From: Methanobrevibacter gottschalkii DSM 11977
GTDB taxonomy: Archaea; Methanobacteriota; Methanobacteria; Methanobacteriales; Methanobacteriaceae
Reading direction: 5' to 3'
DNA length: 64,000 nucleotides
NCBI RefSeq assembly: GCF_003814835.1
Contig: NZ_RKRG01000001.1
Coordinates: 558,001 to 622,000 of the forward strand
Shown: in pieces, positions 2,261 through 42,079 of the stretch
How the letters are laid out: every line of letters begins with the position of its first letter
How positions within the stretch are numbered: position 1 is the first letter of the stretch
Position numbers and translations under genes: made by a program
Notes under the pieces: model-generated
What the model was told of the DNA's origin: nothing
Database searches by the model: none
The model's input: only the letters and a program-made list of their open reading frames with translations

Positions 2261-2375
2261 GAATATTTATTTTTAATCAATTTATATTTAATTTAGTATA
2301 ATTTAATTTTTTTCCATTTTATTTAAATAGTAATTAAAATAGATATATATTCATTAGTGTTTGGGTGGTTATAAA

Positions 2376-8600: not shown

Positions 8601-8611
8601 AGGTGTAGTTA

Positions 8612-14323: not shown

Positions 14324-14490
14324 TTTTCATTTAATATTTCTTTTTTATTCAATTTAATTTTATTTTTATTATTATTTATTTTATTAAAATTTTCTTTAGA
14401 AAAAATTAAATATATATTAATTAATATTCATTATTATGTGTTAAATTAATAATTTAGTTTAATACAATAATTGTGGTGAGGTTAAATATC

Positions 14491-17400
14491 ATGAAATATT
14501 CTAAGTTATTTTTGATATCTTTTGTCTTATTGTTTTTCATTGTAAGTGCTGTTAATGCTTTAGATGCATCTGAAATTACTTTGAATGCAGATAATTCTAT
14601 TGATGAAATATCTAATGAAGATATGGGAATACTTAATGAAGTTTCACCCTCAAATGATATAAAACATATTTATGTAAACGATACTGGGGATGATTCAAAC
14701 ATAGGTTCAATTAATAGTCCTTATTCTTCAATAAGCAAAGCAATTGGTGATGTTAATTCGTCTACAAATACAACGATATATTTAAGTAAAGGAACTTTTG
14801 GAAAAAATAATGATACTAATTTTCAATTTACAAATGAAATAAATACTTATTTTGATAATTGTAATGTGACTTTTATTGGTGAGGGAACTGATAAAACATT
14901 TATAGATGGTAAATCAACATATAAATTCATGACTATACTGGAAATCACTCCTAATTTAGTTTTTAAAGATATTACATTTGTTAATTTTAGAGGACGGGGG
15001 AGTTCTGTTTTTGAACTTTTGGAAGCAGGAAATTTAACAATTGATAATTGTGTTTTTAAAGATTCATATTCTACTAGTAATGGTGATACAATTTCATCTT
15101 CAAATAGTGGTGATTTAAAAATTATTAATTCTCAATTTATTAATTCAAATGGTGGAATAATTAGTTTATTATATGAGGATGTATCTCCCGGAACTCTTTA
15201 TTTAGAAAATAATACTTTTGTAAATATTACTAATTCTGAAAATAATGGAATTGCAGTTACTAGTAATTATGCTAAAGCAGTGATTAAAAATAATAAATTT
15301 AATAATATCACTTGTATTAATCAAAATCAAGTTACCCTTTATTTAGAAGCTCCCGATGAAGGTACACTTGTTTTAACTGATAATAATTTTGTTAATTGTG
15401 AGTGTTTAAATGAATATTTTATGGCTCCAGTATATTTGTGGGCATATGAAGAATATGTAATATTTGAAAGAAATATATTCTTAAATTCTACTGGTGCTTC
15501 TGGATTCAATATATTGCTTAATGGTAGAATGGATAATTTAAATATTAGTATAGGTGCTGATGAGATTAATGTTCATAATAATGAAATTAATCATGGTGTA
15601 AATATTCCAATTAATATAACTGATGATGTAGGAAACTTAGTTTTAATTAATAGTGGAATTCAACTTAATCTTATAGGTGATAATAACAATTATACTCCAT
15701 ATTTAAGTTTAAAAAATAAAAAACTCACATTTGCTACTGTTCCTGAGAGTGGCATTTATAATGTAACTATCACATATAATGATGGGTTATCAACTACTGA
15801 AGTGTTAACTATTATAAAAATTAATATCTCTAGTAGTCCTGTTAATATTTGGGTATCTCCTAAAGGTTCAGATTCAAATAATGGTAGTGAAGAAAACCCA
15901 TTTAAGACAATTCAGCATGCAATAGATACGGGATTTGAAAAATCATTCAATGTCATAATATATTTAGATGAAGGAATTTATTATGGTGAAAGTAATGTTA
16001 ATTTAATAATTACGAATAAAGGTAGTCTTCAAATTATCGGAAAAAAATATAATAAAACTATTATTGATGGGGAACATTCAAATTGGTTTTTGAGTGTTGA
16101 TACTTGTGATGTTGAAGTTAAAAATTTAAAATTCATTAATGGTGCTGGAAATAAAAATTTAATTTCTGGTTCAAATTTACTTAATCTTAAAGATTGTATT
16201 GTAGATAGTAATATTGCTTCAAGAAATTGTTATGTTTTACATCAAACATTATTTGATAATTTAACTTATACAAACAATACTGGTACAATTTATTATAATT
16301 ATAATAGAAATATTACAAAATCAAATTTTATTAACAATAAAAATATTTATGATTCTACTGGTATTATTTATAGTTCTTGGGCTCCTATAATTATTCTTGA
16401 TTGTAAATTCATTAATAATACTGCATTATATGATTATGGTGTAATATACTCTAATAACAACATTATGAGTCTTAATAATTACTATTATGGAAATAAAGCT
16501 AAAAATTATGGAATATTCTATGCTTCGTCTTATTCTAGTAATAAAATGATTTTAATAAATGATACATATATTAATAATCACGTAGATGGATCATATGGAA
16601 TTGGAATTTCACCATATTCCTCTGTAGTAAATTGTAAATTTATTAATAACTCTGCTGGTACAGATGCGGGCATAGGTAGTATAACAATTACCTGTTCATT
16701 TAAAAATTGTTCATTCATAAATAACAGTGCTACTAAGGGCGGTGTTTTTGTATTAAATGCTGTTCAACATGCATTGGGCACTACTTATGAAGAACTTATT
16801 TCATTTGACAATGTAACTTTTGAAAATAATAAAGCTAGCATGGGTGCTGATATTTATCTGCCTCCAAGAAGTTCAAATTCCTATTACTCATATACATATC
16901 CTATTGAATTAACAATTACCTTTGATAATATTACTGTTACTTCCTTAACTGATAATTTAACTGCTAGTGTTTATGGAGTTAATGGAATAATTGTTGGAGG
17001 TGCAATTCTTGAATTTTATTTAAACGAGTTATATATTGGTTCTTCTCAAATTGTTAATAGTAATGCAATTTTAGAATATGATGGTTTTAGTAATGGAAAA
17101 GCTATTGTTAATGGAAATATTATTCATCCTTCTGTAAAAAATAATATAAATAATGCAACATTAGATATTAAATTAGATAATGTATTAAATCATATTGATT
17201 TCTGGGTTTCAAACATAGGTAGTGATGAAAATGGCGATGGTAGTAAAACTAAGCCATTTAAAACAATTCAATATGCTGTTAATAAAGCATTTGAAAATTG
17301 TCGTGATATTACTATCTATCTTGGAGAAGAAACATATTCTGGTGAGAATAACACTAATTTAACTATTTCAAGTGCAAGTAATATAACAATAATTGGTAAA

Positions 17401-19752
17401 GGAATTGGTAAAACAATTATAAATGGTGGTAATAGCAGTTATTTTGTAAAAATTCTCATAGGCATTAATAAAATTATTATTAGTGATTTGACTATTATTA
17501 ATATGACTCCAGATAATAGATTTGATCTTCCAATTGGTTCTACATCACCATCAGGTATACATAGTATTATTAAAAGTGGTTCCACATCACCAATCACTGT
17601 TGATAAGGGAGCAACATTATATTTAAATAATGTAAATATCACAGAATGTCGTGGAGGTAATGCTATAATTGATGGTGAAGGAAACATTTTCATTGATAAT
17701 TCCATATTATATAAAAATGGAGTTTCAAAGGGCATTATTAAATGTGAAAATTTAGTAATTAATAATTCAATAATTGATAAACATTTAGTTGGAGGTTATC
17801 CAATAATAGGAACGAACATTATAATAAATAATACTAAAATTACAGATGTATTTAATATTATTAGAAATGGATTTTATTTTATCTCCAATGCTAAAAATAC
17901 TACTATTGAAAATACATGTGTTTTAATTAATAATTGGGAAAATCCATTAAATATATTGGATATTATTGAATATTATGATACTCAAATATGTCCTGCAGCT
18001 TGTATTGCTTCAACTAATGCAATAATTAAAAATTCATCATTTAAAAATGAATTTGAATTAGTGTATTTATGGCAATCAACTACTGATTATTCATATCATA
18101 ATGTTTACTCAGGATCTAATATTGAAGCAGTTAATTCTTCATTCGAAGGTTATCAATTCATTATATATTCTAGAATGCTTCAAAATCCAATATATAAGTT
18201 CGATGGATGTACATTTAATAATATTGCTAATTTGATGATTATGATGCAATCTAGAAATTCTATAGTATCTTTTTCAAATTCTGTAATGTTCATATCAGGC
18301 AATAAAATTGCAAGTAATAATGCATTTAATAACTCTTTCCTGTTTAACAATAATTATTGGGGTAATAATTCAAAACCCGTAATTCCAAACTCTGTATCTA
18401 ATTTCCAAATACCTTCTCCAGATAATTGGATTATTTTAATTTCTGAAGGAGAAGAACCAGTATTTAAGCTTACAGATGGGAAAAATGTCACTGAGTATAT
18501 ATGTAATTTGCCAGCTAAAATATCTTATGTTGCCGATGAAAATGGTGAAATCATTCCTGTTTTAAATTTAAACGGTAATGGATATAAATTTAATGTGGAT
18601 GAAAACGGTAATGTTGTTCTTAATATCAGTGCTCCGATGAAAAATATTGTTCCTAAAGTTCCAGTTGATGAAACTGTATTCGCAAATGATATTGAAGTTA
18701 TTGTAAACTCTTCTTCTAACTTTAAGGCTAAATTCACTAATAAATGGGGCGATTCATTAAAAGGTATTAATGTTTCATTCATCATTGGTGAAAATATTAT
18801 CAATATAATTACTAATGAAAATGGTACTGCAATATTGCCTGTTGACTTTGATTTAGGAGTATATTTTGTTAAAATTGTTAATCCAGTTACTGGTCAATTT
18901 ATTTTCAAAACTATTGATGTGATACTTGAAAACACGGTTACTGCAAACGATATTATTGTAAAGTACAATGATAAATCTAAATTCTCTGTTATTTTTACTG
19001 ATAAATTTGGAAATCCGTTAATTAACACTAATGTCAAATTTAAAGTAGGAAAGTATATTATTAATAGAACTACTGATGAAAATGGTATTGCTTCATTTGT
19101 TATTAACTTCAATGTTGGTAATTATGCTGTAAATACTATTAATCCAGTTACTAATCAAAGTATTGATAAAATAATTACTGTTAATAAAATAGCTACTAAA
19201 TTAACTTCTCCTAAATTAACTGTAACTTATAATGCTGGTAAATATTTAACTTTAATTTTAAAAGATTTTAATGGAAAAGCATTGATTAATCAAAAAGTTT
19301 CTATTAAAATTAATGGTAAAGTTTACACTAAAATTACTAATTCTAAAGGACGATCTAGTTTAAAAATTAATCTCCCTGTTAAAACATACATTACAACATT
19401 AACCTATGCAGGAGATAGAAATCATATTAAATCCTCTGCAACTACTAAAGTTATAGTTAAAAAAGCAACTCCTAAAATGACTGCTAAAAAAGCAACTTTT
19501 AAATTAAAAACAAAAACTAAGAAATATTCAATTATTTTAAAAGATAACAGGTATAAAGTTATGAAAAAAGTTAAAGTATATCTTAAAGTAAAAGGTAAAA
19601 CTTATAGAGCAATAACTAATTCCAAAGGAAAAGCAACCTTTAAGATTACAAAATTAACTAAAAAAGGAAAATATTCGGCTAGAATAAAATATTCAGGTAA
19701 TAAATACTTTAATTCAATAACAAAATATGTAAAAATAACAATTAAAAGATAG
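14491..19752 (+). CDS. Giant adhesin-like surface protein, three beta-helix modules plus four Ig-like repeats
   Basis: About 1753 aa. The ATG at 14491 is preferred over the GTG at 14473 because GGTGAGGTT lies between them and the ATG begins a proper signal peptide (MKYSKLFLISFVLLFFIVSA). Three beta-helix modules each open with a 'GSD.N.GS...PFKTIQ.A' signature, near residues 65, 455 and 907. About four Ig-like repeats follow from residue 1397, and the last two are lysine-rich and end in IKR, like the first adhesin. A likely promoter TATA (ATATAT near 14410) and a 167-bp gap separate it from the upstream gene, so it may be a separate transcript. Probable wall-bound adhesin; target unknown. Confidence 0.85.
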   Translation: MKYSKLFLISFVLLFFIVSAVNALDASEITLNADNSIDEISNEDMGILNEVSPSNDIKHIYVNDTGDDSNIGSINSPYSSISKAIGDVNSSTNTTIYLSKGTFGKNNDTNFQFTNEINTYFDNCNVTFIGEGTDKTFIDGKSTYKFMTILEITPNLVFKDITFVNFRGRGSSVFELLEAGNLTIDNCVFKDSYSTSNGDTISSSNSGDLKIINSQFINSNGGIISLLYEDVSPGTLYLENNTFVNITNSENNGIAVTSNYAKAVIKNNKFNNITCINQNQVTLYLEAPDEGTLVLTDNNFVNCECLNEYFMAPVYLWAYEEYVIFERNIFLNSTGASGFNILLNGRMDNLNISIGADEINVHNNEINHGVNIPINITDDVGNLVLINSGIQLNLIGDNNNYTPYLSLKNKKLTFATVPESGIYNVTITYNDGLSTTEVLTIIKINISSSPVNIWVSPKGSDSNNGSEENPFKTIQHAIDTGFEKSFNVIIYLDEGIYYGESNVNLIITNKGSLQIIGKKYNKTIIDGEHSNWFLSVDTCDVEVKNLKFINGAGNKNLISGSNLLNLKDCIVDSNIASRNCYVLHQTLFDNLTYTNNTGTIYYNYNRNITKSNFINNKNIYDSTGIIYSSWAPIIILDCKFINNTALYDYGVIYSNNNIMSLNNYYYGNKAKNYGIFYASSYSSNKMILINDTYINNHVDGSYGIGISPYSSVVNCKFINNSAGTDAGIGSITITCSFKNCSFINNSATKGGVFVLNAVQHALGTTYEELISFDNVTFENNKASMGADIYLPPRSSNSYYSYTYPIELTITFDNITVTSLTDNLTASVYGVNGIIVGGAILEFYLNELYIGSSQIVNSNAILEYDGFSNGKAIVNGNIIHPSVKNNINNATLDIKLDNVLNHIDFWVSNIGSDENGDGSKTKPFKTIQYAVNKAFENCRDITIYLGEETYSGENNTNLTISSASNITIIGKGIGKTIINGGNSSYFVKILIGINKIIISDLTIINMTPDNRFDLPIGSTSPSGIHSIIKSGSTSPITVDKGATLYLNNVNITECRGGNAIIDGEGNIFIDNSILYKNGVSKGIIKCENLVINNSIIDKHLVGGYPIIGTNIIINNTKITDVFNIIRNGFYFISNAKNTTIENTCVLINNWENPLNILDIIEYYDTQICPAACIASTNAIIKNSSFKNEFELVYLWQSTTDYSYHNVYSGSNIEAVNSSFEGYQFIIYSRMLQNPIYKFDGCTFNNIANLMIMMQSRNSIVSFSNSVMFISGNKIASNNAFNNSFLFNNNYWGNNSKPVIPNSVSNFQIPSPDNWIILISEGEEPVFKLTDGKNVTEYICNLPAKISYVADENGEIIPVLNLNGNGYKFNVDENGNVVLNISAPMKNIVPKVPVDETVFANDIEVIVNSSSNFKAKFTNKWGDSLKGINVSFIIGENIINIITNENGTAILPVDFDLGVYFVKIVNPVTGQFIFKTIDVILENTVTANDIIVKYNDKSKFSVIFTDKFGNPLINTNVKFKVGKYIINRTTDENGIASFVINFNVGNYAVNTINPVTNQSIDKIITVNKIATKLTSPKLTVTYNAGKYLTLILKDFNGKALINQKVSIKINGKVYTKITNSKGRSSLKINLPVKTYITTLTYAGDRNHIKSSATTKVIVKKATPKMTAKKATFKLKTKTKKYSIILKDNRYKVMKKVKVYLKVKGKTYRAITNSKGKATFKITKLTKKGKYSARIKYSGNKYFNSITKYVKITIKR

Positions 19753-32879: not shown

Positions 32880-34565
32880 ATGAATTTTGAAAAGTCCATT
32901 GGTGCTCATGTCATATTCTTTGATGGGAACTATTGTGTTAAGGGGTATAATGATAGTTTTGCAAATTTTTTTGACATTGAAGAGGATTTGACAGGAAAAC
33001 ATATTGATGATTTAGAAATGCCTGCTGATTTTGCGGATTTCATTCTTTCTGGGGAAGAGGAAATTGAATTATCATTAAATGTTAAAAATCGCTGGATTGA
33101 TGTAAAGAAAGAGACAATTAATACTAATGGTGCTTTAATTGGTCATTTCTTTATTCTGGAAGATGTAACTGATCAAATAATTAATAATCAGGAATTAATT
33201 GCACTTAATTCTGTTATTGGGGATGTACAGGATGTCATGTCCATGTCAATTCATTTTAAAGATGCTGAAGGTAAATATCATTGGACTCCTGAGACTTATG
33301 CTTTAATTGACCGTGAACCTAGGCTTGGAGATGAAAATAATAATATTTTTGATTCTATAACTGTTCAAAATTTGGATAACATTGCAGATAATCGTCCCAA
33401 CATCGATGATGATGTTTATGTGGAAGATTTTACAATTATTACTGAATCAGGTAAAACTAAATATCTGAGAGGCACTGCCCACAATGTTTTTGATGATGAG
33501 GGTAATTTTCTCCGTCTTATCATGACTGCACAAGATCTTACAAAAGAACATTTGCAAGAGGCAAACCTAAAAATTTTAGATAGTTTAATGTCTGATAGTA
33601 ATTATCAACTTGGTGTTGGTAGTTATGTTCATGAGATAGGCAGTGATTATTTTTGTATTTCGAAGGAGGCAGTTGATATTGCTGAACTTAATGAAAATGA
33701 AGATTCACACATGCAGTTAAAAAGCCTTAGTGGAAATTTTGTTGATTCGGATGCCTTTAAAAAAGAAGTGGGCAAATTAATATCAGGTGAATTGGATAAA
33801 ATTGACAATGTGTGGGAATACAAATCACCAAAAACAGGCCAAATCAAAAAATTACATGTAATTAATTCTATAAAAGTCGTTGGTGGGCGAATATTTTCAT
33901 TTGGTGGAATAAAAGATGTTACAAGTGAAATGGAAAAACAAGAGAAACTGAAGCATCATAATATGGAACTGGAAATGCTCATACGTGAAAGCAACCATAG
34001 GATAAAAAATAATTTAAATCTGCTACTTAGATTCATATCTCTTGAAAAAAGGTTTAATAAGAATAATCCTGAGAAGATTATTGAAAATACTGTTGGAAGA
34101 ATCGAATCATTTTCCTTACTTCATGAAAAAATTTATAATGTGGACAATTTTAAGGATATTAATGTTGAAGAATACTTGAATTCTTTAATTAGCGGGTTGT
34201 ATTCTATATTTGGTGATGACGGCAGTATTAATTATAATTCAAACAATAATGAACTTATATTGAACAGTGAAATACTTGTTCCATTATCTTTGATAATCAC
34301 TGAACTTGTTATTAATTCAATCAAATATGGTTATGTTGATTATGAGTTGGATAATAAAGCAATTAATGTCTCTGTTGATAAATTTGATAATAAATTAATA
34401 TTGCATTACTCTGATAATGGTAAGGGATTGCCTAAAGACTTTAACCCTCATAAAAGTATTGGTCTTGGTTGGAGAATTATTAATTCTTTAATCAGTCAGT
34501 TAGAAGGGGAATATGAAGTATTTAATGATGATGGAATGCATTTTAAATTAACATTTAATATTTAA
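32880..34565 (+). CDS. PAS-domain sensor histidine kinase (HisKA_2 type)
   Basis: A 561-aa soluble kinase with no membrane helix. The N-terminal half holds probable PAS domains (about 1-100, 105-225 and 230-345), with FFDIEEDLTGKHIDDLEMP in the first and RLIMTAQDLTKEH and FGGIKDVTSEME closing the next ones. A short coiled coil leads to the H-box SNHRIKNNLNLLLRFISLEK (near 375), typical of HisKA_2/HWE-like kinases. The ATPase domain carries the N-box ELVINSIKYGYV (near 478), YSDNGKGLPKDF and IGLGWRIINSLISQLEG. No response regulator gene is adjacent. The signal is unknown; a PAS-bound ligand or redox cue is possible. The gene seems leaderless. Confidence 0.88.
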   Translation: MNFEKSIGAHVIFFDGNYCVKGYNDSFANFFDIEEDLTGKHIDDLEMPADFADFILSGEEEIELSLNVKNRWIDVKKETINTNGALIGHFFILEDVTDQIINNQELIALNSVIGDVQDVMSMSIHFKDAEGKYHWTPETYALIDREPRLGDENNNIFDSITVQNLDNIADNRPNIDDDVYVEDFTIITESGKTKYLRGTAHNVFDDEGNFLRLIMTAQDLTKEHLQEANLKILDSLMSDSNYQLGVGSYVHEIGSDYFCISKEAVDIAELNENEDSHMQLKSLSGNFVDSDAFKKEVGKLISGELDKIDNVWEYKSPKTGQIKKLHVINSIKVVGGRIFSFGGIKDVTSEMEKQEKLKHHNMELEMLIRESNHRIKNNLNLLLRFISLEKRFNKNNPEKIIENTVGRIESFSLLHEKIYNVDNFKDINVEEYLNSLISGLYSIFGDDGSINYNSNNNELILNSEILVPLSLIITELVINSIKYGYVDYELDNKAINVSVDKFDNKLILHYSDNGKGLPKDFNPHKSIGLGWRIINSLISQLEGEYEVFNDDGMHFKLTFNI

Positions 34566-34621
34566 ATTCCCAAAATAAATTTATAATGGATGCTGCTAAA
34601 TATAACATCGAGGAAAATGTT

Positions 34622-35014
34622 ATGAAAACATTAAATGTCGTTGCAGCAATTATTAAAAAAGATAATAAAATTTTAGCAACCAAAAGGGGTTATGGTGAAT
34701 TCACTGATATGTGGGAGTTTCCAGGTGGAAAAATAGAAAATAATGAAACAAAAGAGGAAGCTATTATAAGAGAAATCAAAGAAGAACTTGACTGTGTTAT
34801 TGAACCTACAAAATTTGCCTTGGACTTAGAATATCAATATCCTACTTTTTATCTTAAAATGAGTTGTTTTGAAGCTATAATTAAAGAAGGAACTCCAAAA
34901 CTCATAGAACACAATGATGCGAAATGGTTAACTAAACAAGAATTGGATTCAATTAACTGGATTCCAGCAGATATTCAGATAATTGACTATTTAAAAGAAA
35001 CAATGAGGGATTAA
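34622..35014 (+). CDS. NUDIX hydrolase, MutT/(deoxy)nucleoside triphosphate pyrophosphohydrolase type
   Basis: About 130 aa. The ATG at 34622 is preferred because GAGGAAAATGTT precedes it; the ATG at 34586 would add twelve residues containing that ribosome site. The NUDIX box is complete: GGKIENNETKEEAIIREIKEEL matches GX5EX7REUXEEXGU except that the last Gly is replaced (EELDCVI). WEFPGGK and the following strand match MutT-like 8-oxo-dGTP or non-canonical dNTP pyrophosphatases. It is followed 1 bp later by a tiny coiled-coil gene and then a PLD-helicase, a compact three-gene unit. Its partner role may be nucleotide sanitation or cleavage of a signalling nucleotide; not resolved. Confidence 0.88.
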   Translation: MKTLNVVAAIIKKDNKILATKRGYGEFTDMWEFPGGKIENNETKEEAIIREIKEELDCVIEPTKFALDLEYQYPTFYLKMSCFEAIIKEGTPKLIEHNDAKWLTKQELDSINWIPADIQIIDYLKETMRD

Positions 35015-35015
35015 T

Positions 35016-35165
35016 ATGATTGATAAAAGATTGGAACTTGCAAAAAATAAAAAAGTTGAATTAGAGCTTAAACTTAAAAAAGTTAAAGGAACTCCAAGAG
35101 AAGAAGATTTTAAACTCCAAATTGAAAAACTAGAACAGTTAATTGAACATCTTCAAAAAGAGTAG
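35016..35165 (+). CDS. Small charged coiled-coil protein in the NUDIX-helicase cassette
   Basis: A 49-codon ORF with ATG at 35016, one base after the NUDIX stop, and a GAGGGA ribosome site. The product is highly charged and heptad-like throughout (KRLELAKNKKVELELKLKKV, a PREED break, then QIEKLEQLIEHLQKE), so two antiparallel coiled-coil helices around a Gly-Thr-Pro turn are likely. It ends six bases before the helicase start. Position and spacing say it belongs to the operon. Possible roles are assembly adaptor or helicase regulator. I know no named family. Confidence 0.72.
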   Translation: MIDKRLELAKNKKVELELKLKKVKGTPREEDFKLQIEKLEQLIEHLQKE

Positions 35166-35171
35166 ATTTAA

Positions 35172-38129
35172 ATGAATATGGATGAAATCTTAAATGGTGC
35201 AAGAACTGCTTTTATTGATGAAAAACTGGATTCCAGCCTAGATTTCAGACCAAAACTATTGCATAATGGCAAAGAAACAAAAGTCATTAATTCAATTCGT
35301 GATGAACTTCAAAATTGTGATGAATTTATAATATCCTCAGCTTTCATCACATTAAGTGGTTTGACTCCCCTTTTAGAAGAGTTTAGGAACTTGGAGCAAA
35401 AAAATATCAAAGGTAAGATTCTCACAACTGATTATTTAAATTTTACAGAACCAAAAGCTTTAAGAAAACTTCAACAATTCGGTAATATTGAAGTTAAGAT
35501 TTACAGTCAGGAAAAAGAAGGTTTTCACACTAAAGGATATATTTTTAAGAAAGATGATGTTTATAAGGGTATTGTTGGAAGCTCTAATTTAACAATGAAT
35601 GCATTATCTGTAAATAAGGAGTGGAATGTTGAATTTACTTCTCTAAAAGAAGGTGAAATGTTATCTGAAATTAAAAGCGAATTTTTCGCATTATGGAGGG
35701 AAGCTGATGATTTAAACAATGTTCTTCCAGAATATGAAAAAATTTACAATGACAATAAACGTTTCACTGATTTAAGGAAAATTACAGCTGAAATTAAAAA
35801 GAAAAATATCACATTAACTCCAAATATTATGCAGGAACAGTTTATTGAAAACTTAAGAAAACTCATCAAACAAGGTGAAAAGAGAGCTATTTTGGTATCA
35901 GCAACAGGAACTGGTAAAACATATGCATCTGCTTTTGCAGTAAATGATTTTAATCCTAAAAAACTTTTATTTTTAGTTCACAGGGAACAAATTGCAAAAC
36001 AATCAATTAATGCTTATAAAAATGTCTTTAAAGATCATGAAAATTTCGGATTGTTGTCTGGAAATTCCAAAGATTATGATAAAAATTATCTTTTCTCAAC
36101 AATTCAGACAATGTCAAAAGATGATGTGTTTAGAAGATATGATAAAAATCATTTTGACTATATTATTATTGATGAGGTTCACAAAGCCGGTGCATTAAGT
36201 TATCAAAAGATTTTCCAATATTTTGAGCCTAAATTCTGGCTGGGGATGACTGCATCACCTGAGAGGACTGATGGATTTAACATCTATGATCTGTTTGATA
36301 ATAATATTGCCCATGAAATTAGACTTCAGGAAGCTCTAGAAGAGGATTTGTTATGTCCATTTCATTACTTTGGGATTGCTGATGTTGAGTTTTGTGATGG
36401 TGAAATTGATGATTCTTTTGAAGACTTTAATTTACTTGCATCTGATAAACGTGTTGATTATCTGATAGAAAAATCAGAGTTTTATGGATATTCTGGCGAT
36501 AGAAGAAAAGCATTGGTATTTTGTTCTAGAAAAAAAGAAGCAGAATTATTGTCAGATGAATTTAATAGGAGAGGTTATAACTCTACTGTATTAACAGGGG
36601 ATGATTCACAGGAGAAAAGGATTGAAGCTATTGATAGATTAACTAATGATGAAAATCCGGATAAGTTGGAATTTATTTTCACTGTGGATATTTTCAATGA
36701 AGGAGTTGATATTCCTGAAATTAATCAGGTATTGCTTGTTAGGCCAACTGAATCTCCAATTATTTTCATACAGCAACTTGGAAGAGGTCTTAGGAAATAT
36801 GAAAATAAGGAATATGTTGTTATAATTGATTTTATTGGTAATTATAAGAATAATTTCATGATTCCCATTGCACTTTCAGGAGATAGATCGTATGATAAGG
36901 ATAAAATTCGTAAATACTTAATGGAAGGAAATAAAATTATTCCCGGTGCTTCTTCAATTAATTTTGATGAAATTTCCAGAAAACGTATATATGAGTCAAT
37001 TAATAATTCTTCTTTTTCAAAAATTGGCGTATTTAAAGAAAAATACAATAATTTAAAATATAAGTTAGGTCGTATTCCTTCATTGCATGATTTTGCAATT
37101 AACGGCGAATTTAATCCTGAACTTATCTTAAATCACTCCAGATTTGATTCATATCATAATTTTTTAGATTATGTTGATAATGATTATAATTCAACACTAA
37201 GCGATGCAGAAGTTGCATCTCTTAAATTCATTTCCAAAAAGTTAATAAAAGGAATAAGGCCTCATGAACTTGTTATTTTAAGTTGTCTTAAATTTAATAA
37301 TTATTTCACTGTTAATCAAATTGAAAAGTATTTAAATGAGAAATATGGTCTTTCAAATCAATTTAAATCTATTAGGAATGCTATTAATTATTTAAGTATG
37401 AATTTTTACAGAAAAGAGACAAGTGATGATTATCAAGCCAATACTGTCACTAGTTTTGTTTCAAAAGAAAAAATCATTGATTATGAGGACATTTTCTTTA
37501 ACTTTGATGAAGAAATCTATAATGATTTAGAAAATAATAAAGATTTTAAATTTGAGATTTCACATTATTTCAAATCTTGTTTAATCAATCCAGTTTATTT
37601 AAATCATTTTGAAGATGCTGTAAAATATGCGATATTTAAATATGCTCAAGTTTACAAAAGCAATGATAAATTTAGATTATATGAGAAATACTCAAGAGAA
37701 GACGTTTTAAGACTTTTAAATTGGGAAAGATTCATGAATGCTCAAAATATTGGAGGATATAAAGTCAAATACAACACTTGTCCAATTTTTGTAACTTATG
37801 ATAAAAAAGATGATATTTCAGAAACTATTAATTATGAAGATCAATTTTTATCAAAACAACTCTTTAGCTGGATGAGTAGAAACAATAGAAAAATATCAAG
37901 TTCGGAACTAGAGCCAATTGTTAACTACACAGATTTGGATATTGAGTTATTTATCCAGAAAAGTAATGATGAAGGCATTGAATTTTATTATGTTGGTAAG
38001 CTAACACCATTAGAACATGATCAGCTTTATCGTGAAATTGAAGGTAAACAACATCCAATTGTTAATTTTAAATTTAAAATTAGTCCTGAAGTTAAAGATG
38101 AACTTTACAGTTATTTTATAAATGATTAA
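35172..38129 (+). CDS. PLD-nuclease / SF2 helicase / DUF3427 fusion protein
   Basis: 985 aa with three parts. Residues about 20-185 form a phospholipase-D-like nuclease domain with one HKD set: FHTKGYIFKKD and GSSNLTMNAL. Residues about 210-600 are an SF2 helicase: SATGTGKTYASAF (motif I), IIIDEVHKAGA (DEVH, II), GMTASPERTD (III), VFCSRKKEAE, TVDIFNEGVDIPE (V) and IQQLGRGLRKYE (VI). The remaining part resembles DUF3427, which is often joined to such helicases. The ATG at 35172 is six bases after the coiled-coil gene. Single HKD domains usually dimerise for catalysis. Related PLD-helicases occur in defence islands and near restriction genes; here antiviral or DNA-repair roles are inference. 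Confidence 0.85.
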   Translation: MNMDEILNGARTAFIDEKLDSSLDFRPKLLHNGKETKVINSIRDELQNCDEFIISSAFITLSGLTPLLEEFRNLEQKNIKGKILTTDYLNFTEPKALRKLQQFGNIEVKIYSQEKEGFHTKGYIFKKDDVYKGIVGSSNLTMNALSVNKEWNVEFTSLKEGEMLSEIKSEFFALWREADDLNNVLPEYEKIYNDNKRFTDLRKITAEIKKKNITLTPNIMQEQFIENLRKLIKQGEKRAILVSATGTGKTYASAFAVNDFNPKKLLFLVHREQIAKQSINAYKNVFKDHENFGLLSGNSKDYDKNYLFSTIQTMSKDDVFRRYDKNHFDYIIIDEVHKAGALSYQKIFQYFEPKFWLGMTASPERTDGFNIYDLFDNNIAHEIRLQEALEEDLLCPFHYFGIADVEFCDGEIDDSFEDFNLLASDKRVDYLIEKSEFYGYSGDRRKALVFCSRKKEAELLSDEFNRRGYNSTVLTGDDSQEKRIEAIDRLTNDENPDKLEFIFTVDIFNEGVDIPEINQVLLVRPTESPIIFIQQLGRGLRKYENKEYVVIIDFIGNYKNNFMIPIALSGDRSYDKDKIRKYLMEGNKIIPGASSINFDEISRKRIYESINNSSFSKIGVFKEKYNNLKYKLGRIPSLHDFAINGEFNPELILNHSRFDSYHNFLDYVDNDYNSTLSDAEVASLKFISKKLIKGIRPHELVILSCLKFNNYFTVNQIEKYLNEKYGLSNQFKSIRNAINYLSMNFYRKETSDDYQANTVTSFVSKEKIIDYEDIFFNFDEEIYNDLENNKDFKFEISHYFKSCLINPVYLNHFEDAVKYAIFKYAQVYKSNDKFRLYEKYSREDVLRLLNWERFMNAQNIGGYKVKYNTCPIFVTYDKKDDISETINYEDQFLSKQLFSWMSRNNRKISSSELEPIVNYTDLDIELFIQKSNDEGIEFYYVGKLTPLEHDQLYREIEGKQHPIVNFKFKISPEVKDELYSYFIND

Positions 38130-38400
38130 CAGTTTCTATTAATATTTTATATTCATTGTCAATGTTTAATTTCATTAAAATCTTTAATATTTCGTAATTC
38201 TACTTTTAAGTTATTCTATTTTGAAAATACATTGATTTGGCTATTTTTTCCAATTTTACTTTTTATAGTTTACTTTTCTTGAAGAGAATTTTTTTACAAT
38301 AACTTTATAAGCATTATTCAAATGTCAATTTACAATCAGATAAACATTATTTTTTAAATTTGATATTTCACTGTCAATGAAATAACTTATGGGTATTTTT

Positions 38401-39582
38401 TTAATATGGATAATTTCCTTTTTCTTCGTATTCCTTTTTTAGCCATGCTTTGAAAATAGAATCATATATCATATAACCATCTTTATCTAATTCTATTAAA
38501 GTTTTATTTTGCAATGATTTTAGGGAAGCACCAATGGCTCCACTTGTTACTCCTAATTTATTTGCTATTTCAATTCTTTTCAATGGTTTTTCAACAAGAG
38601 CAGTGATAATTCTTTGTTCTTGATTATTTAGTTTATACCATTCATTGGTCAAATGAATCAATAAATAAGGTAAGGCTTTTTTAAATTCAGAAATTATTTT
38701 TTTTTCATTTAATTCTTCATTAGGAGGTAATAATCTTGCAAAACTATTAACATAATATGGAATTCCATTTGTACATTTATAAAACCTTTCAATCCCATCA
38801 TCAGTAAATTTAAGATAGTTTGCTTTTTCTTTTAAATAATTTTCTGTTGTATTAAATGGGAATGTCTTAAGTTCATAATTTAATATTCTACCTCCAAAAG
38901 CTCCTTTTTGACCTGCAATATCTGCAATCAATTCATCTTTAACGCTCATGCTTCCGGAAAAAATATAACCAATATGTTTTTGTGATTGAATAACACTTCT
39001 GATGTACCATAAAAATCCGTTAACATCTTCATCAAGTTGTTTTAACATTTGAAATTCGTCCATAAATATTAAAACACCATCAATATGATCTTTGCAATCA
39101 TCATATATCTGTTGGGGCAAATCCATTACAAAAGTAGTGAATTTTGCATAATCCTCTTCTGATTTAAGAATAGGGATGGGAATTTTATCAACTGATTTTA
39201 GTTTATCTAATTTAAAATTGCGTGTTTTAAAATATTTTAAAATCTGTGTATCAATAGTTATGATATTTGAATGCCTTAATGCTTTGATAATAGACTCGTA
39301 AAATAATTTCATAAAGCTAAAACGGGTTAGTTCGTTTTTTTTAAATTTATCCATTGCTGATAAGTCCATATAAACAACTAAATAATCATTTTGAAAATCT
39401 TTTTTTAATTTTTTCATTAATGCAGTTTTACCTACTCCTCTAATGCCTGTAAGCAGTATTGTTGGAGTTGATCCTTTTTTAGTTAGTTCTAAATTATCAC
39501 ATATGAATGAAATCTCCTCTACTCTATTATAGAACTGTGTGTCATCTAAATCATTGTCATTTCCTAATGGTAAACTTGCCAT
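38401..39582 (-). CDS. Archaeal AAA ATPase of the ATPase_2 (PF01637-like) family
   Basis: 393-aa STAND-like archaeal ATPase. Walker A is LLTGIRGVGKTALMKKL (near 45) and Walker B is DGVLIFMDEFQML (near 170). A sensor region reads YIFSGSMSVKDEL and is followed by FGGRILNYELKTFPFN, which is typical of the family. The C-terminal 90 residues form a winged helix (RIIT.LVEKPLKRIEIANKLGV...IGASLKSLQNKTLIE). The ATG follows GGTGCTAAT. These ATPases often occur alone in archaeal genomes and their role is unclear; DNA-linked or mobile-element functions have been suggested. Two identical palindromes lie 45-105 bp upstream, which suggests specific regulation, possibly by its own winged helix. Confidence 0.82.
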   Translation of the reverse strand: MASLPLGNDNDLDDTQFYNRVEEISFICDNLELTKKGSTPTILLTGIRGVGKTALMKKLKKDFQNDYLVVYMDLSAMDKFKKNELTRFSFMKLFYESIIKALRHSNIITIDTQILKYFKTRNFKLDKLKSVDKIPIPILKSEEDYAKFTTFVMDLPQQIYDDCKDHIDGVLIFMDEFQMLKQLDEDVNGFLWYIRSVIQSQKHIGYIFSGSMSVKDELIADIAGQKGAFGGRILNYELKTFPFNTTENYLKEKANYLKFTDDGIERFYKCTNGIPYYVNSFARLLPPNEELNEKKIISEFKKALPYLLIHLTNEWYKLNNQEQRIITALVEKPLKRIEIANKLGVTSGAIGASLKSLQNKTLIELDKDGYMIYDSIFKAWLKKEYEEKGNYPY

Positions 39583-39626
39583 ATTAGCACCTTAGTTAAT
39601 ATTTTTAGAAACATTTTATATAAACA

Positions 39627-39704
39627 TAATGGAAATTCCATTATAATGCATAAAACACACATCACCTTATGTAATGGAAATTCCATTATAATGCAGAAAA
39701 CACA
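39627..39704 (-). promoter_or_regulatory. Two direct repeats carrying 17-bp palindromes upstream of the AAA ATPase
   Basis: TAATGGAAATTCCATTA occurs at 39627-39643 and again at 39672-39688. Each is a perfect palindrome around a central A, and each lies in a longer direct repeat continuing TAATGCA(T/G)AAAACACA, with a 45-bp period (about four helical turns). They lie 45-106 bp before the ATPase start and nowhere else that I noticed in the window, so they look like paired operator sites for a dimeric regulator. Confidence 0.65.
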
Positions 39705-39715
39705 TATAACATTAC

Positions 39716-39871
39716 CAATAAAACTGAAGGTTTTAACGGACTTCCAAAAATTTTATAATTTCTAGAAAATTCTTTATTTGAGTTTAATGATAAAAACCGT
39801 AAATATAAGGACTATTTGCACATTTTATCTGTCTATAATTCAGTAGGCATAACTCTTGTTAAGAAACTATA
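39716..39871 (+). pseudogene. Short decayed coding remnant
   Basis: Two frames joined at one shift read LKVLTDFQKFYNF and then FLENSLFEFNDKNRKYKDYL followed by HILSVYNSVGITLVKKL and a TAA near 39871. The composition is protein-like and unlike the surrounding A+T-rich noncoding DNA. No start codon or ribosome site is evident. It may be the remnant of a mobile-element gene; the family was not recognised. Confidence 0.35.
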
Positions 39872-40224
39872 AACTAAATTTTAAATATTAAAATAATTTA
39901 TATAATGGATGTAATATATTTTGATGAAAATTTCAAAAATCATCATATCCTTAAAAAACAGATTCCCATTAATTAATTTTTAATAAACTCCATAAATCAT
40001 AATAATTAACTAAAAAAATAAGGATTTTTCAAAAATTTTCAATTTTAAAGCAGTACATTGTATTTACAGTAAAAAGTTTCTCTGTGAGTAAGTCACGATT
40101 TTTCATGCGATTCGCGTTTTAAAAGTAAATTTCACAAATTTATCTAAAAACAATTATTTAATATTATTTGACATTAAAAAACAATATCTAATTAATTTTA
40201 CTAAAATATAGCACTAAAATCCAT
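39872..40224. other. A+T-rich noncoding stretch before the origin-like motifs
   Basis: About 350 bp with no ORF. It has long A/T runs and a small island of higher GC near 40085-40118 that contains an inverted repeat GCGA/TCGC around one base (40107-40115). Together with the motifs at 40225-40268 it could serve as an easily melted region, but nothing else was recognised. Confidence 0.4.
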
Positions 40225-40268
40225 TTACACTTGAAATTCACCTTTAAATAGGTTGTGTTTCAAGTATA
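40225..40268. promoter_or_regulatory. Inverted pair of origin-recognition-box-like motifs (cluster 1)
   Basis: TTACACTTGAAATTCACC at 40225-40242 faces GGTTGTGTTTCAAGTATA at 40251-40268; the latter reads TATACTTGAAACACAACC on the minus strand. The shared core (T(T/A)(A)CACTTGAAA) resembles the short Orc1/Cdc6 recognition boxes described for euryarchaeal origins, including Methanothermobacter (from memory). The pair flanks TTTAAATA. The second copy overlaps the upstream end of the 335-codon ORF, supporting its later ATG. Confidence 0.5.
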
Positions 40269-40323
40269 TTTTTTTCAACTGTTTTCCATAATTTTTATTA
40301 ATTTTAAAAGAAAATGTATTATT

Positions 40324-41262
40324 ATGGATAGGAAATATCTGCGGGAAAATAAAAATTCTTTTAATATAGTTAAAAATTCTAAAATTTATGCAAAAATAAC
40401 TGCATATGAAGATACTATTTTTATTAGGGATTTATTGATCAAATATGATTGGAATTTGGATAAAATGCCATCTATTATTAAAAACGAAGAAAAGTATTTG
40501 GTTTTAGCCGTAATTGATGAAAAATTACGGTTACTTGCGAAATACAATACTCGACCTGATTCTCAAGTAATAACAAAGCTTATTAGAAAATTCAAAAGAA
40601 ATCCAAATAATTCAGCATATGGTTTAAATATTACAAAAGTATTTGATACATATGTAATTAAAAAGCAGATTGCAGGTGATGAGTATATATTTGGATATTA
40701 TGATAATTTAGATGATGCTCAATTTGTTAGAAATATTCTGTTGGATAATAATTGGGATGTAAACATATTTAATGAAATAGAATTTGATGATGAAACACTT
40801 AATTACAGAGTTATTAGTGTAATTGATAGCAATGTTTATGTTTTAGGCAATTTTAAAGCTAAAGATGAAATCGATATTAAAAAGATTCGTGAGGAATTTT
40901 TAGCCAAAATATCAAAGCATAAATATGGTCTTGCAAGTTATCCTCACTTGGATCTTCTAAAAGATAAAATCTCTGAATTGGAAGAAAAATTCAATGTCAA
41001 AACAAAGGATGGGATATGGTCATTTGAGAATATCAGTGAAAATGAATCCGTTTTGAATCAAATTATTTTTAATTTAACTCCATTTCAACAAGCTGTTTTT
41101 GATGCAATAGATAAAAATACATCTTACGATCAAATTAAAAAATCATTAATCAGATATAATTCTAAAAATTTTGATAAAAAGATATTGAGAAATTTAGATG
41201 GTTTAATTGAATTAAAGCTCATAGAAAAAATAGATGATGGTTATTCTAAAACAAATTTATAA
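40324..41262 (+). CDS. Repeat protein of unknown function with C-terminal helical domain
   Basis: About 312 aa from the ATG at 40324 (MDRKYLRENKNSF); the GTG at 40255 would run through the origin-like motif and gives an unlikely leader. Residues about 20-190 hold two copies of a roughly 110-aa unit: 'Y..TIFIRDLLIKYDWNLDKMPSI' and 'YDNLDDAQFVRNILLDNNWDVNIF', each followed by 'YLVLAVID' or 'YRVISVID' and a strand. Between them lies KKQIAGDEYIFGYYD, reminiscent of small DNA-binding AP2-like folds common in Methanobrevibacter proteins (from memory). The C-terminal part (about 225-312) is helical and looks like a winged helix (FQQAVFDAI...ILRNLDGLIELKLIEK). DNA binding is likely but unproven. Confidence 0.7.
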   Translation: MDRKYLRENKNSFNIVKNSKIYAKITAYEDTIFIRDLLIKYDWNLDKMPSIIKNEEKYLVLAVIDEKLRLLAKYNTRPDSQVITKLIRKFKRNPNNSAYGLNITKVFDTYVIKKQIAGDEYIFGYYDNLDDAQFVRNILLDNNWDVNIFNEIEFDDETLNYRVISVIDSNVYVLGNFKAKDEIDIKKIREEFLAKISKHKYGLASYPHLDLLKDKISELEEKFNVKTKDGIWSFENISENESVLNQIIFNLTPFQQAVFDAIDKNTSYDQIKKSLIRYNSKNFDKKILRNLDGLIELKLIEKIDDGYSKTNL

Positions 41263-41332
41263 ATACAAAGCAAAACTAATAATCAATTGTATTTGAGAAA
41301 TTAAATACAAAGTTCTTTTTTGGTTTGAACTG

Positions 41333-41357
41333 AGGGGAGTTTTCGTCACTCTCCCCT
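41333..41357. terminator. GC-rich bidirectional hairpin between convergent genes
   Basis: AGGGGAG at 41333-41339 pairs with CTCCCCT at 41351-41357 around an 11-base loop. It lies between two convergent genes, with a T-tract upstream (41315-41321) and A/T-rich flanks, and can serve both. Confidence 0.6.
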
Positions 41358-41367
41358 ATTCAAATAC

Positions 41368-41556
41368 TTATTTTCTGTCACTTAACAATTCACCAGCAAC
41401 TCCAATATCATCAAAGTCATATTCTTGAATTAATACGGTTATTGCTTCTATTGGCAGACCATATGCTTCAGATACTACTTCAGATACTTTTTTGACCATT
41501 TCTCTTTTCTTTTCTATAGTTATTCCTTTATTTCCAGCTATTGTAATTACGGGCAT
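41368..41556 (-). CDS. 4-oxalocrotonate tautomerase family protein
   Basis: A 62-aa member of the 4-OT superfamily. Met1 is followed by Pro2 (MPVITIAGNKGITIEKKREM), the catalytic base after Met removal. The second half carries the beta-strand and helix arrangement AITVLIQEYDFDDIGVAGELL. Such enzymes form hexamers and tautomerise keto/enol acids; archaeal members without a catechol pathway have unknown substrates. A GGTGATAAA site precedes the ATG. It diverges from the dUTPase-family gene across about 65 bp. Length matches the family exactly. Confidence 0.9.
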   Translation of the reverse strand: MPVITIAGNKGITIEKKREMVKKVSEVVSEAYGLPIEAITVLIQEYDFDDIGVAGELLSDRK

Positions 41557-41620
41557 TTTATCACCATTTAAACTATATTAAGTATTGGATATAAATAAAT
41601 TATTAAAAGGTTTTGATATA

Positions 41621-42079
41621 ATGCTTGGTGAAAGAGAACTTGTTAAGTTATTTCCAGACTTCGCTGATTTAGTACAGCCTTCTGGAATTGATTTGGAATT
41701 AGATAAGATATATACACAAGAAAGCGGCGGGTCTTTAATTGATAATGAAAAAAACTTGCCCGAAATTAAAGAAATGGATGGAGGCATCTACACTTTAAAA
41801 CCACATACTGCATATCTTGCAAGTATTAAAAGGAAAATTAAAATTCCAAAAGGATATGCCATGCTTTATCTTCCAAGATCAACACTTCTTAGATCTTTTG
41901 TTTCTGTTCAAACAGCAGTAGGTGATCCCGGATTTTATGGGACTCTCATGTTCATGATTTACAATCATGGGGACTATGAATATAAAATCAAATCAGGGGA
42001 TAGAATCGCTCAGGCTGTTGTATTTCCTGTTGTTGGTTCTGGTGAATATAATGGATCTTATCAGGAGGTGGAAGAGTGA
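41621..42079 (+). CDS. dut: dUTP diphosphatase / dCTP deaminase family enzyme
   Basis: About 152 aa from the ATG at 41621 (MLGERELVKLFPDF), the usual start of archaeal family members; the TTG at 41585 overlaps the promoter. The DCD-DUT fold shows QPSGIDLELDKIY, a PRSTLLRSF motif and TAVGDPGFYGTLMFMI with the substrate-binding region, then GDRIAQAVVFPV. It removes dUTP, or deaminates dCTP and hydrolyses dUTP in the bifunctional forms, to keep uracil out of DNA. I cannot separate the two from the sequence alone. The last four bases overlap the GTG of the next gene, so they are translationally coupled. Confidence 0.85.
   Translation: MLGERELVKLFPDFADLVQPSGIDLELDKIYTQESGGSLIDNEKNLPEIKEMDGGIYTLKPHTAYLASIKRKIKIPKGYAMLYLPRSTLLRSFVSVQTAVGDPGFYGTLMFMIYNHGDYEYKIKSGDRIAQAVVFPVVGSGEYNGSYQEVEE

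What the first reader, a model, noticed from the sequence alone, without database searches (positions are those of the whole stretch)
34622..38129. NUDIX / coiled-coil / PLD-helicase-DUF3427 cassette
Three genes separated by 1 and 6 bp combine a nucleotide pyrophosphatase, a 49-aa charged coiled coil and a fused nuclease-helicase. PLD-helicase fusions occur in defence islands, but the small coiled-coil gene between is, to my knowledge, undescribed. The NUDIX could clear modified nucleotides or a signal nucleotide, which would make this a candidate antiviral or DNA-damage system.
Basis: partly seen in the sequence, partly recalled or inferred. Interest (0 to 1): 0.65.

Follow-up and report, generated by a model that had tools for sequence, protein, structure and literature searches.

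The report
Methyl-DNA restriction enzyme with nucleotide-cleaning partner
A gut methanogen carries a known type of enzyme that shreds foreign DNA containing methylated cytosine, next to a small enzyme that very probably destroys the matching methylated DNA building block, so that such letters stay out of the cell's own DNA; a tiny helper protein of unknown role sits between them.

Summary
The three genes are real and placed as stated. The 985-aa protein is a full-length relative of SauUSI, a characterised type IV restriction enzyme that shreds 5mC/5hmC DNA. Nuclease, ATPase and most 5mC-pocket residues are conserved. The NUDIX belongs to PADLOC candidate family PDC-S07. Its nearest functionally characterised homologue, B. 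fragilis 3GWY, cleaves 5-methyl- and 5-hydroxymethyl-dCTP: the triphosphates of the bases SauUSI attacks. In the genus, NUDIX and nuclease occur together or not at all (49 of 49 NUDIX genomes; none without). In a clostridial family 62 of 112 such NUDIX genes lie beside a SauUSI-type gene. Others lie beside HNH/SRA type IV enzymes or m5C methyltransferases, and one is fused to Vsr. The shared theme is 5-methylcytosine. Best explanation: type IV restriction plus nucleotide-pool cleaning that keeps modified dCTP out of DNA (self-protection, and possibly starvation of modified-DNA viruses). The 49-aa protein is a conserved helical hairpin confined to Methanobrevibacter and one related genus. It also occurs beside Sau3AI-type and McrBC-like systems; its role is unknown. 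Enzyme and NUDIX family were known; the pairing logic and the hairpin appear undescribed in the papers searched. No activity was tested.

The parts
34580..34613 (+). Possible promoter (TTTATAAT, 34580-34587) and ribosome-binding site (GAGG, 34610-34613) of the operon
   Evidence: Read from the sequence; archaeal consensus from general knowledge, not tested
34622..35014 (+). NUDIX hydrolase, 130 aa, PDC-S07 family; proposed 5-methyl-/5-hydroxymethyl-dCTP pyrophosphohydrolase. Nudix box intact; cytidine-type Asp117 and His97 where MutT has Asn and Gly
35016..35165 (+). 49-aa helical hairpin (helices 2-23 and 28-48), lineage-specific accessory of unknown role; GAGGG ribosome-binding site at 35005-35009 inside the NUDIX end
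35172..38129 (+). [quoted passage not shown]
35172..35741 (+). PLD nuclease domain (residues 1-190; catalytic H119, K121; GSSN)
   Evidence: boundaries from alignment to SauUSI (PMC7913695)
35814..36851 (+). SF2 ATPase/translocase (residues about 215-560; K249, D334, E335, R538, R541 invariant in 79 sequences)
37683..38126 (+). Target-recognition (SRA-like) end of DUF3427 (residues about 838-985); 5mC pocket Y863, F873, V874, D890, W900

Best explanation
[quoted passage not shown] SHOWN by sequence: the 985-aa protein has the full SauUSI architecture (PLD nuclease, SF2 motor, coupler, SRA-like 5mC reader), and the NUDIX has an intact active site, belongs to the family whose nearest functionally characterised PDB homologue hydrolyses 5-Me-dCTP and 5-hydroxymethyl-dCTP, and is tightly linked to this nuclease in two domains of life. 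INFERRED: the nuclease recognises 5mC/5hmC in incoming DNA, translocates and shreds it. The NUDIX converts 5-Me-dCTP/5-hm-dCTP to monophosphate, so that modified cytosine released from degraded DNA, or made by a virus, is not built into newly made DNA. This protects the host genome from becoming a target and may starve viruses that depend on modified dCTP. In m5C restriction-modification loci the same NUDIX would keep 5mC from entering DNA other than by the methyltransferase. The 49-aa hairpin is most likely an accessory or adaptor of restriction complexes; that step is a guess.
For: Helicase: PDB 7clg (953 aa, the length of SauUSI) E 2.9e-215 over residues 11-984; PADLOC mREase_IV 727.6 bits over the whole length; H119 and K121 invariant in 79 of 79; pocket Y863 (Y/F in 78 of 79), F873 (79 of 79), D890 (78 of 79), W900 (50 of 79). 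SauUSI biochemistry: PMC7913695, PMC3874153. NUDIX: PDC-S07 160.9 bits; the clostridial partner's best PDB match is 3GWY, 99 bits against 68 for MutT and 67 for NudG; 3GWY kcat/Km about 4-7e6 per M per s for 5-Me-CTP, 5-Me-dCTP and 5-MeOH-dCTP (PMC5158307); Asp117 in 64 of 65 and His97 in 65 of 65, as in 3GWY and NudG, not MutT. Linkage: 49 of 49 in the genus; 62 of 112 in a clostridial family, 59 downstream on the same strand, although in archaea it is upstream and in a few clostridia on the opposite strand; Bacteroidota and S. aureus plasmids; S. suis 23/23 co-localised (PMC12813430). Other partners: HNH/SRA-type proteins (7 of 9 genome-wide matches adjacent), m5C methyltransferases (5 within 5 kb, about 0.2 expected), HaeIII REase, Eco47II plus two m5C MTases, NUDIX-Vsr fusion.
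Against: No activity was measured. The window NUDIX's own top PDB hit by score is 5x1x, annotated only as MutT protein; 3GWY is second. Many SauUSI-type enzymes, the original S. aureus enzyme included as far as known, seem to work without this NUDIX, and 32 of 112 clostridial NUDIX copies had no evident 5mC or defence partner. m5C methyltransferases are no rarer in genus genomes that carry the cassette (20 of 51) than in those without (6 of 16), and this genome has an Eco47II-type m5C system, so plain '5mC is toxic here' needs a sequence-context qualification. Pocket Met829 is Gly here, and the (x)4E part of the PLD motif is Lys.
Confidence: 0.62

Rival explanations
1. Offence rather than self-protection: the NUDIX mainly depletes modified dCTP made by viruses that replace cytosine, forcing them to make ordinary DNA, while the nuclease cuts any modified DNA that is made.
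For: Same substrate evidence; PADLOC lists PDC-S07 as a stand-alone candidate defence gene; about 45% of clostridial copies are not beside the nuclease.
Against: In the genus the NUDIX is never kept without the nuclease. I know of no Methanobrevibacter virus with 5mC- or 5hmC-substituted DNA. Association with m5C writers and a Vsr fusion points to managing 5mC in the host.
Confidence: 0.22
2. The NUDIX is an ordinary MutT-type housekeeping enzyme (8-oxo-dGTPase) that happens to travel with the restriction gene.
For: Weak similarity to MutT (TIGR00586 80.1 bits); window NUDIX top PDB hit is called MutT.
Against: Scores are below the curated MutT and NudG cut-offs (97.9 and 156); Asp instead of MutT Asn119, His instead of Gly; strict linkage with 5mC enzymes across archaea, Bacillota, Bacteroidota.
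Confidence: 0.09
3. Signal-nucleotide system: the NUDIX hydrolyses an alarm nucleotide controlling the helicase-nuclease.
For: Adjacency only; NUDIX proteins can cleave signalling nucleotides in general.
Against: No cyclase, synthetase or sensor was seen to recur near the cassette in the genus or in the clostridial loci examined; the nuclease already has its own trigger domain (SRA-like).
Confidence: 0.03
4. The 49-aa hairpin is a subunit or inhibitor of the NUDIX specifically, not of the nuclease.
For: It is encoded directly after the NUDIX; seven genomes lack it and instead carry a NUDIX with a helical C-terminal extension.
Against: It also occurs beside a Sau3AI-type R-M, a McrBC-like pair and a DISARM-like gene without any NUDIX there; the extension is not detectably homologous to it (hhalign probability 0.3%).
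Confidence: 0.2

Closest known systems
SauUSI (type IV restriction enzyme, S. aureus; PDB 7clg; PMC7913695)
   Same: Full-length colinear homology: PLD nuclease, SF2 ATPase, coupler, SRA-like target-recognition domain; catalytic and most 5mC-pocket residues kept
   Different: Archaeal; encoded in an operon with a NUDIX and a small hairpin gene; Met829 is Gly, E126 is Lys; cleavage and context untested
PADLOC PDC-S07 (phage defence candidate, single gene)
   Same: The window NUDIX matches the model over its full length, 160.9 bits
   Different: PADLOC gives no mechanism; here it is one of three genes and a substrate is proposed
Q5LBB1 of Bacteroides fragilis (PDB 3GWY), 5-methyl-dCTP pyrophosphohydrolase
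   Same: Closest functionally characterised homologue; shares YPxF...M, EH and Asp117 positions
   Different: Distant in sequence; its genomic neighbours were not examined; no restriction partner is reported for it in the papers read
E. coli NudG/Orf135 (PDB 2RRK)
   Same: Same activity class (5-methyl-dCTP, CTP); same Asp and His positions
   Different: Stand-alone housekeeping gene; lower similarity; below the NCBIfam cut-off
Type II R-M with m5C methyltransferase (HaeIII, Eco47II, Sau3AI/MutH families)
   Same: Members of the NUDIX or hairpin families occur inside such loci
   Different: The window locus has no methyltransferase in the operon

Membership tests
SauUSI-type type IV restriction enzyme | Single chain PLD nuclease + SF2 ATPase + DUF3427/SRA-like TRD, colinear | tested here: met
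   Pfam order and phmmer to 7clg over residues 11-984, E 2.9e-215
SauUSI-type type IV restriction enzyme | PLD catalytic HxK | tested here: met
   H119 and K121, 79 of 79 family members; the (x)4E of the SauUSI motif is Lys here
SauUSI-type type IV restriction enzyme | Walker A / DE / arginine-finger motifs | tested here: met
   K249, D334, E335, R538, R541 invariant
SauUSI-type type IV restriction enzyme | 5mC-flipping pocket (Y831, F841, I842, D858, W868, M829) | tested here: inconclusive
   Five of six kept or conservative; M829 is G861; fold of this domain not modelled here
SauUSI-type type IV restriction enzyme | No cognate methyltransferase in the operon | tested here: met
   None seen among the genes at 32880-42079
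SauUSI-type type IV restriction enzyme | ATP-dependent cleavage of 5mC/5hmC DNA | not testable with these tools
   Needs purified protein
PDC-S07 (PADLOC) | Match to the profile over its length | tested here: met
   160.9 bits, residues 1-127 of 130
5-methyl-dCTP pyrophosphohydrolase (3GWY/NudG type) | Intact Nudix box | tested here: met
   G36, E42, R50, E51, E54, E55 in 65 of 65
5-methyl-dCTP pyrophosphohydrolase (3GWY/NudG type) | Asp at the base-recognition position (MutT Asn119) | tested here: met
   D117 in 64 of 65; D in 3GWY and NudG, N in MutT
5-methyl-dCTP pyrophosphohydrolase (3GWY/NudG type) | Activity on 5-Me-dCTP / 5-hm-dCTP | not testable with these tools
   Inferred from 3GWY (PMC5158307)
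MutT 8-oxo-dGTPase | Curated equivalog score TIGR00586 (97.9 bits) | tested here: not met
   80.1 bits
EcoAI-type type I R subunit | Curated equivalog score NF046051 (550 bits) | tested here: not met
   117.1 bits, motor domain only

The most novel reading that the evidence does not exclude
A general principle: cells that read or write 5-methylcytosine for DNA restriction carry a dedicated NUDIX that removes 5-modified dCTP, so that modified cytosine can enter DNA only through a methyltransferase. It acts as a nucleotide-pool 'antidote', exchanged between SauUSI-type, HNH/SRA-type and m5C R-M systems. In Methanobrevibacter it has recruited a new 49-aa helical hairpin that also serves other restriction systems.
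Probability: 0.45. Interest if true: 0.78.

Novelty: new variant of a known kind. Interest (0 to 1): 0.62.

Why it matters
Type IV enzymes are thought of as lone nucleases. A partner that removes exactly the triphosphates of the bases they attack would explain how cells avoid self-restriction when modified DNA is degraded and its nucleotides are recycled. It would also give a mechanism to PDC-S07, a common but unexplained entry in defence surveys, and make it testable with standard nucleotide assays. The hairpin gives archaeal restriction a new small component to study.

Tried and rejected
Anti-correlation of the cassette with m5C methyltransferases in the genus: none (20 of 51 against 6 of 16, p = 1), so the simplest toxicity model is not supported at that level. 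Homology between hairpin and NUDIX C-terminal extension: not found. Structure of the fused NUDIX: model too poor to use (pLDDT 50). Fold search with the hairpin: only generic hairpins, no E below 0.001. Hairpin in viral contigs: none. Viral contigs for the helicase: mostly matches to the motor part only, one distant near-full-length match at 30% identity. RNA families: none. NUDIX tree: places 3GWY as the nearest PDB row, but long branches make it weak. Literature for a NUDIX-SauUSI or NUDIX-type IV mechanism: nothing in the held library. The original PDC-S07 description was not found in the held library and was not read.
Full report
OBSERVATION. The window lies in a genome whose nearest named relatives are Methanobrevibacter. 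A possible TATA box (34580-34587) and GAGG motif precede the NUDIX, and a GAGGG motif inside the NUDIX end precedes the small ORF (read; not tested). There is no RNA family or tRNA in the stretch.

THE LARGE PROTEIN. It is a full-length homologue of SauUSI. phmmer to PDB 7clg (953 aa, the size of SauUSI) gives E 2.9e-215 over residues 11-984, and PADLOC's mREase_IV model gives 727.6 bits. The SauUSI papers describe a dimeric PLD nuclease, an SF2 translocase, a coupler and an SRA-fold reader of 5mC and 5hmC that activates the ATPase and shreds DNA between sites (PMC7913695, PMC3874153). Mapping the published residues onto the window protein gives H119 and K121 (invariant in 79 relatives) and pocket residues Y863, F873, V874, D890 and W900 in place of Y831, F841, I842, D858 and W868; M829 becomes G861. 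In several relatives the motor is about 68-77% identical to the window while the last 190 residues are only about 46-53%, as expected of an enzyme that changes target specificity.

THE NUDIX. It matches PADLOC PDC-S07 and falls below the curated MutT and NudG cut-offs. Its relatives beside clostridial SauUSI-type genes have PDB 3GWY as best match (99 bits; MutT 68, NudG 67; one representative). For the window protein 3GWY is second (74 bits) after the functionally undescribed 5x1x (101 bits). 3GWY is Q5LBB1 of B. fragilis, one of eight NUDIX enzymes screened on 74 substrates: it prefers 5-Me-CTP, 5-Me-dCTP and 5-MeOH-dCTP (kcat/Km about 4-7e6 per M per s) and is about 50-fold weaker on 5-OH-dCTP (PMC5158307). 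MutT hydrolyses 5-Me-dCTP about a thousand times less well (2.8e3; PMC3744803), and NudG is a recognised 5-Me-dCTP pyrophosphatase (PMC5389931). In 65 family members beside the nuclease the Nudix box is intact; Asp117 and His97, shared with 3GWY and NudG but not MutT, are practically invariant. That Asp117 lies at the base-recognition position (MutT Asn119) is from general knowledge of MutT structures.

LINKAGE IN THE GENUS. Of 67 genomes, 49 have the NUDIX and all 49 have the nuclease. Two more have the nuclease on contigs cut off before a complete NUDIX, and 16 have neither orthologue. In many of these genomes the cassette follows directly after an AAA (McrB-like) gene and a DUF2357/PDDEXK_7 (McrC-like) gene, although not in the window, where a PAS-histidine kinase precedes it.

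LINKAGE BEYOND THE GENUS. In Clostridia the same NUDIX usually sits downstream of the nuclease, in a few loci on the opposite strand. In 250 genomes of the family of Mediterraneibacter catenae, 62 of 112 NUDIX places lie within 8 kb of a SauUSI-type gene (E at most 1e-80; this count includes some more distant members of that nuclease family), typically tens of bases away. It is also beside the nuclease on a Hymenobacter plasmid and an S. aureus plasmid record. A S. suis survey found PDC-S07 and type IV RM co-localised in 23 of 23 cases; the passages read propose no reason (PMC12813430).

THE COPIES THAT ARE NOT BESIDE THE NUCLEASE were the best control. Of the 50, seven adjoin a protein family that PADLOC calls mREase_IV in its HNH form, or that has a weak SAD_SRA match; only nine matches to that family exist in the 48 genomes, and seven of them are the adjacent ones. 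Five lie within 5 kb of an m5C methyltransferase, about 0.2 expected by my estimate, one of them with a HaeIII endonuclease. Four adjoin broken SauUSI-type genes. Three adjoin Schlafen-group-3 helicase proteins. One locus counts in two groups, so at least 18 have such a partner and 32 do not. On plasmids, one copy shares a locus with Eco47II and two m5C methyltransferases, and one is fused to Vsr, the endonuclease that repairs 5mC deamination. The common denominator is 5-methylcytosine, not oxidation or signalling.

THE SMALL PROTEIN. AlphaFold2 gives a confident helical hairpin (pLDDT 94.9, helices 2-23 and 28-48). It is selected as protein and conserved. A profile search finds it in 41 of 67 genus genomes and, in 152 genomes of the phylum, in only one outside the genus. 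Among cassette genomes of the main lineage, all 37 that could be assessed have it: 30 in the cassette and 7 elsewhere. The seven genomes with a NUDIX C-terminal extension and the six with divergent NUDIX lack it, and only 4 of 16 genomes without the cassette have it. Outside the cassette it is found directly beside m5C methyltransferase plus MutH/Sau3AI-type endonuclease genes (three genomes), after a McrBC-like pair (one), and near a DISARM-like gene (one). It is therefore a restriction-associated accessory, not a NUDIX-only partner. What it binds is unknown.

MECHANISM AND LIMITS. The parsimonious reading is that the NUDIX keeps 5-modified dCTP out of DNA. With a 5mC-dependent nuclease this prevents self-restriction after modified DNA has been shredded and recycled, and it may starve viruses using modified dCTP. 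With m5C R-M systems it prevents unprogrammed 5mC. Against the simplest version, m5C methyltransferases are as common in cassette genomes as in others, and this genome has an Eco47II-type R-M in what looks like a prophage, so recognition must be context-limited as it is for SauUSI. Nothing here was tested biochemically.

NOVELTY. The nuclease family is known and the NUDIX family is catalogued. The held library has no paper joining NUDIX and SauUSI beyond one incidental co-mention, and none joining NUDIX, type IV restriction and 5hmC. The mechanistic pairing, the partner exchange among 5mC systems and the hairpin appear undescribed there, with the caveat that the PDC-S07 source paper could not be read.

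Noticed in passing
window 41585-42079 +: A dCTP deaminase/dUTPase-family gene lies 3.5 kb downstream of the cassette (PF22769 E 2.4e-20), another dCTP-pool enzyme; in L259 and L264 the same gene is near an orphan copy of the hairpin gene.
   Followed up: partly
window 2361-19752 +: Three giant ORFs in a row (2079, 1903, 1759 aa), probably surface or adhesin-like proteins; not analysed.
   Followed up: no
window 38401-39582 -: Archaeal ATPase_2-family gene convergent to the nuclease, with a weak match to PADLOC PDC-S27 (43.6 bits).
   Followed up: no
G048, G082, G050, G021, G010: SauUSI-type motor domains about 68-77% identical to the window but target-recognition domains only about 46-53%: apparent swaps or fast divergence of specificity.
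   Followed up: partly
L065 and L066 (G071, G069): An extra gene of about 138 aa lies between NUDIX and hairpin and itself ends in a hairpin-like charged helical segment.
   Followed up: no
L285:3336-5080: The window's own genome carries an m5C methyltransferase with an Eco47II-type endonuclease next to capsid-like genes, so probably a prophage-borne R-M system.
   Followed up: partly
L234, L248, L250, L278: PDC-S07 NUDIX fused to other domains in bacteria: what looks like a SAM-dependent methyltransferase (L234, L248), an acetyltransferase-like region (L250), and Vsr (L278; only this one confirmed by Pfam).
   Followed up: partly
NZ_CP077890.1 (L282); OR845003.1: An S. aureus plasmid record and a Staphylococcus phage record carry this NUDIX; on the plasmid record it is directly upstream of a SauUSI-type gene.
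   Followed up: partly
L259, L263, L266: Orphan hairpin genes sit beside the same membrane-permease gene in three genomes, a fixed chromosomal site separate from the cassette.
   Followed up: partly
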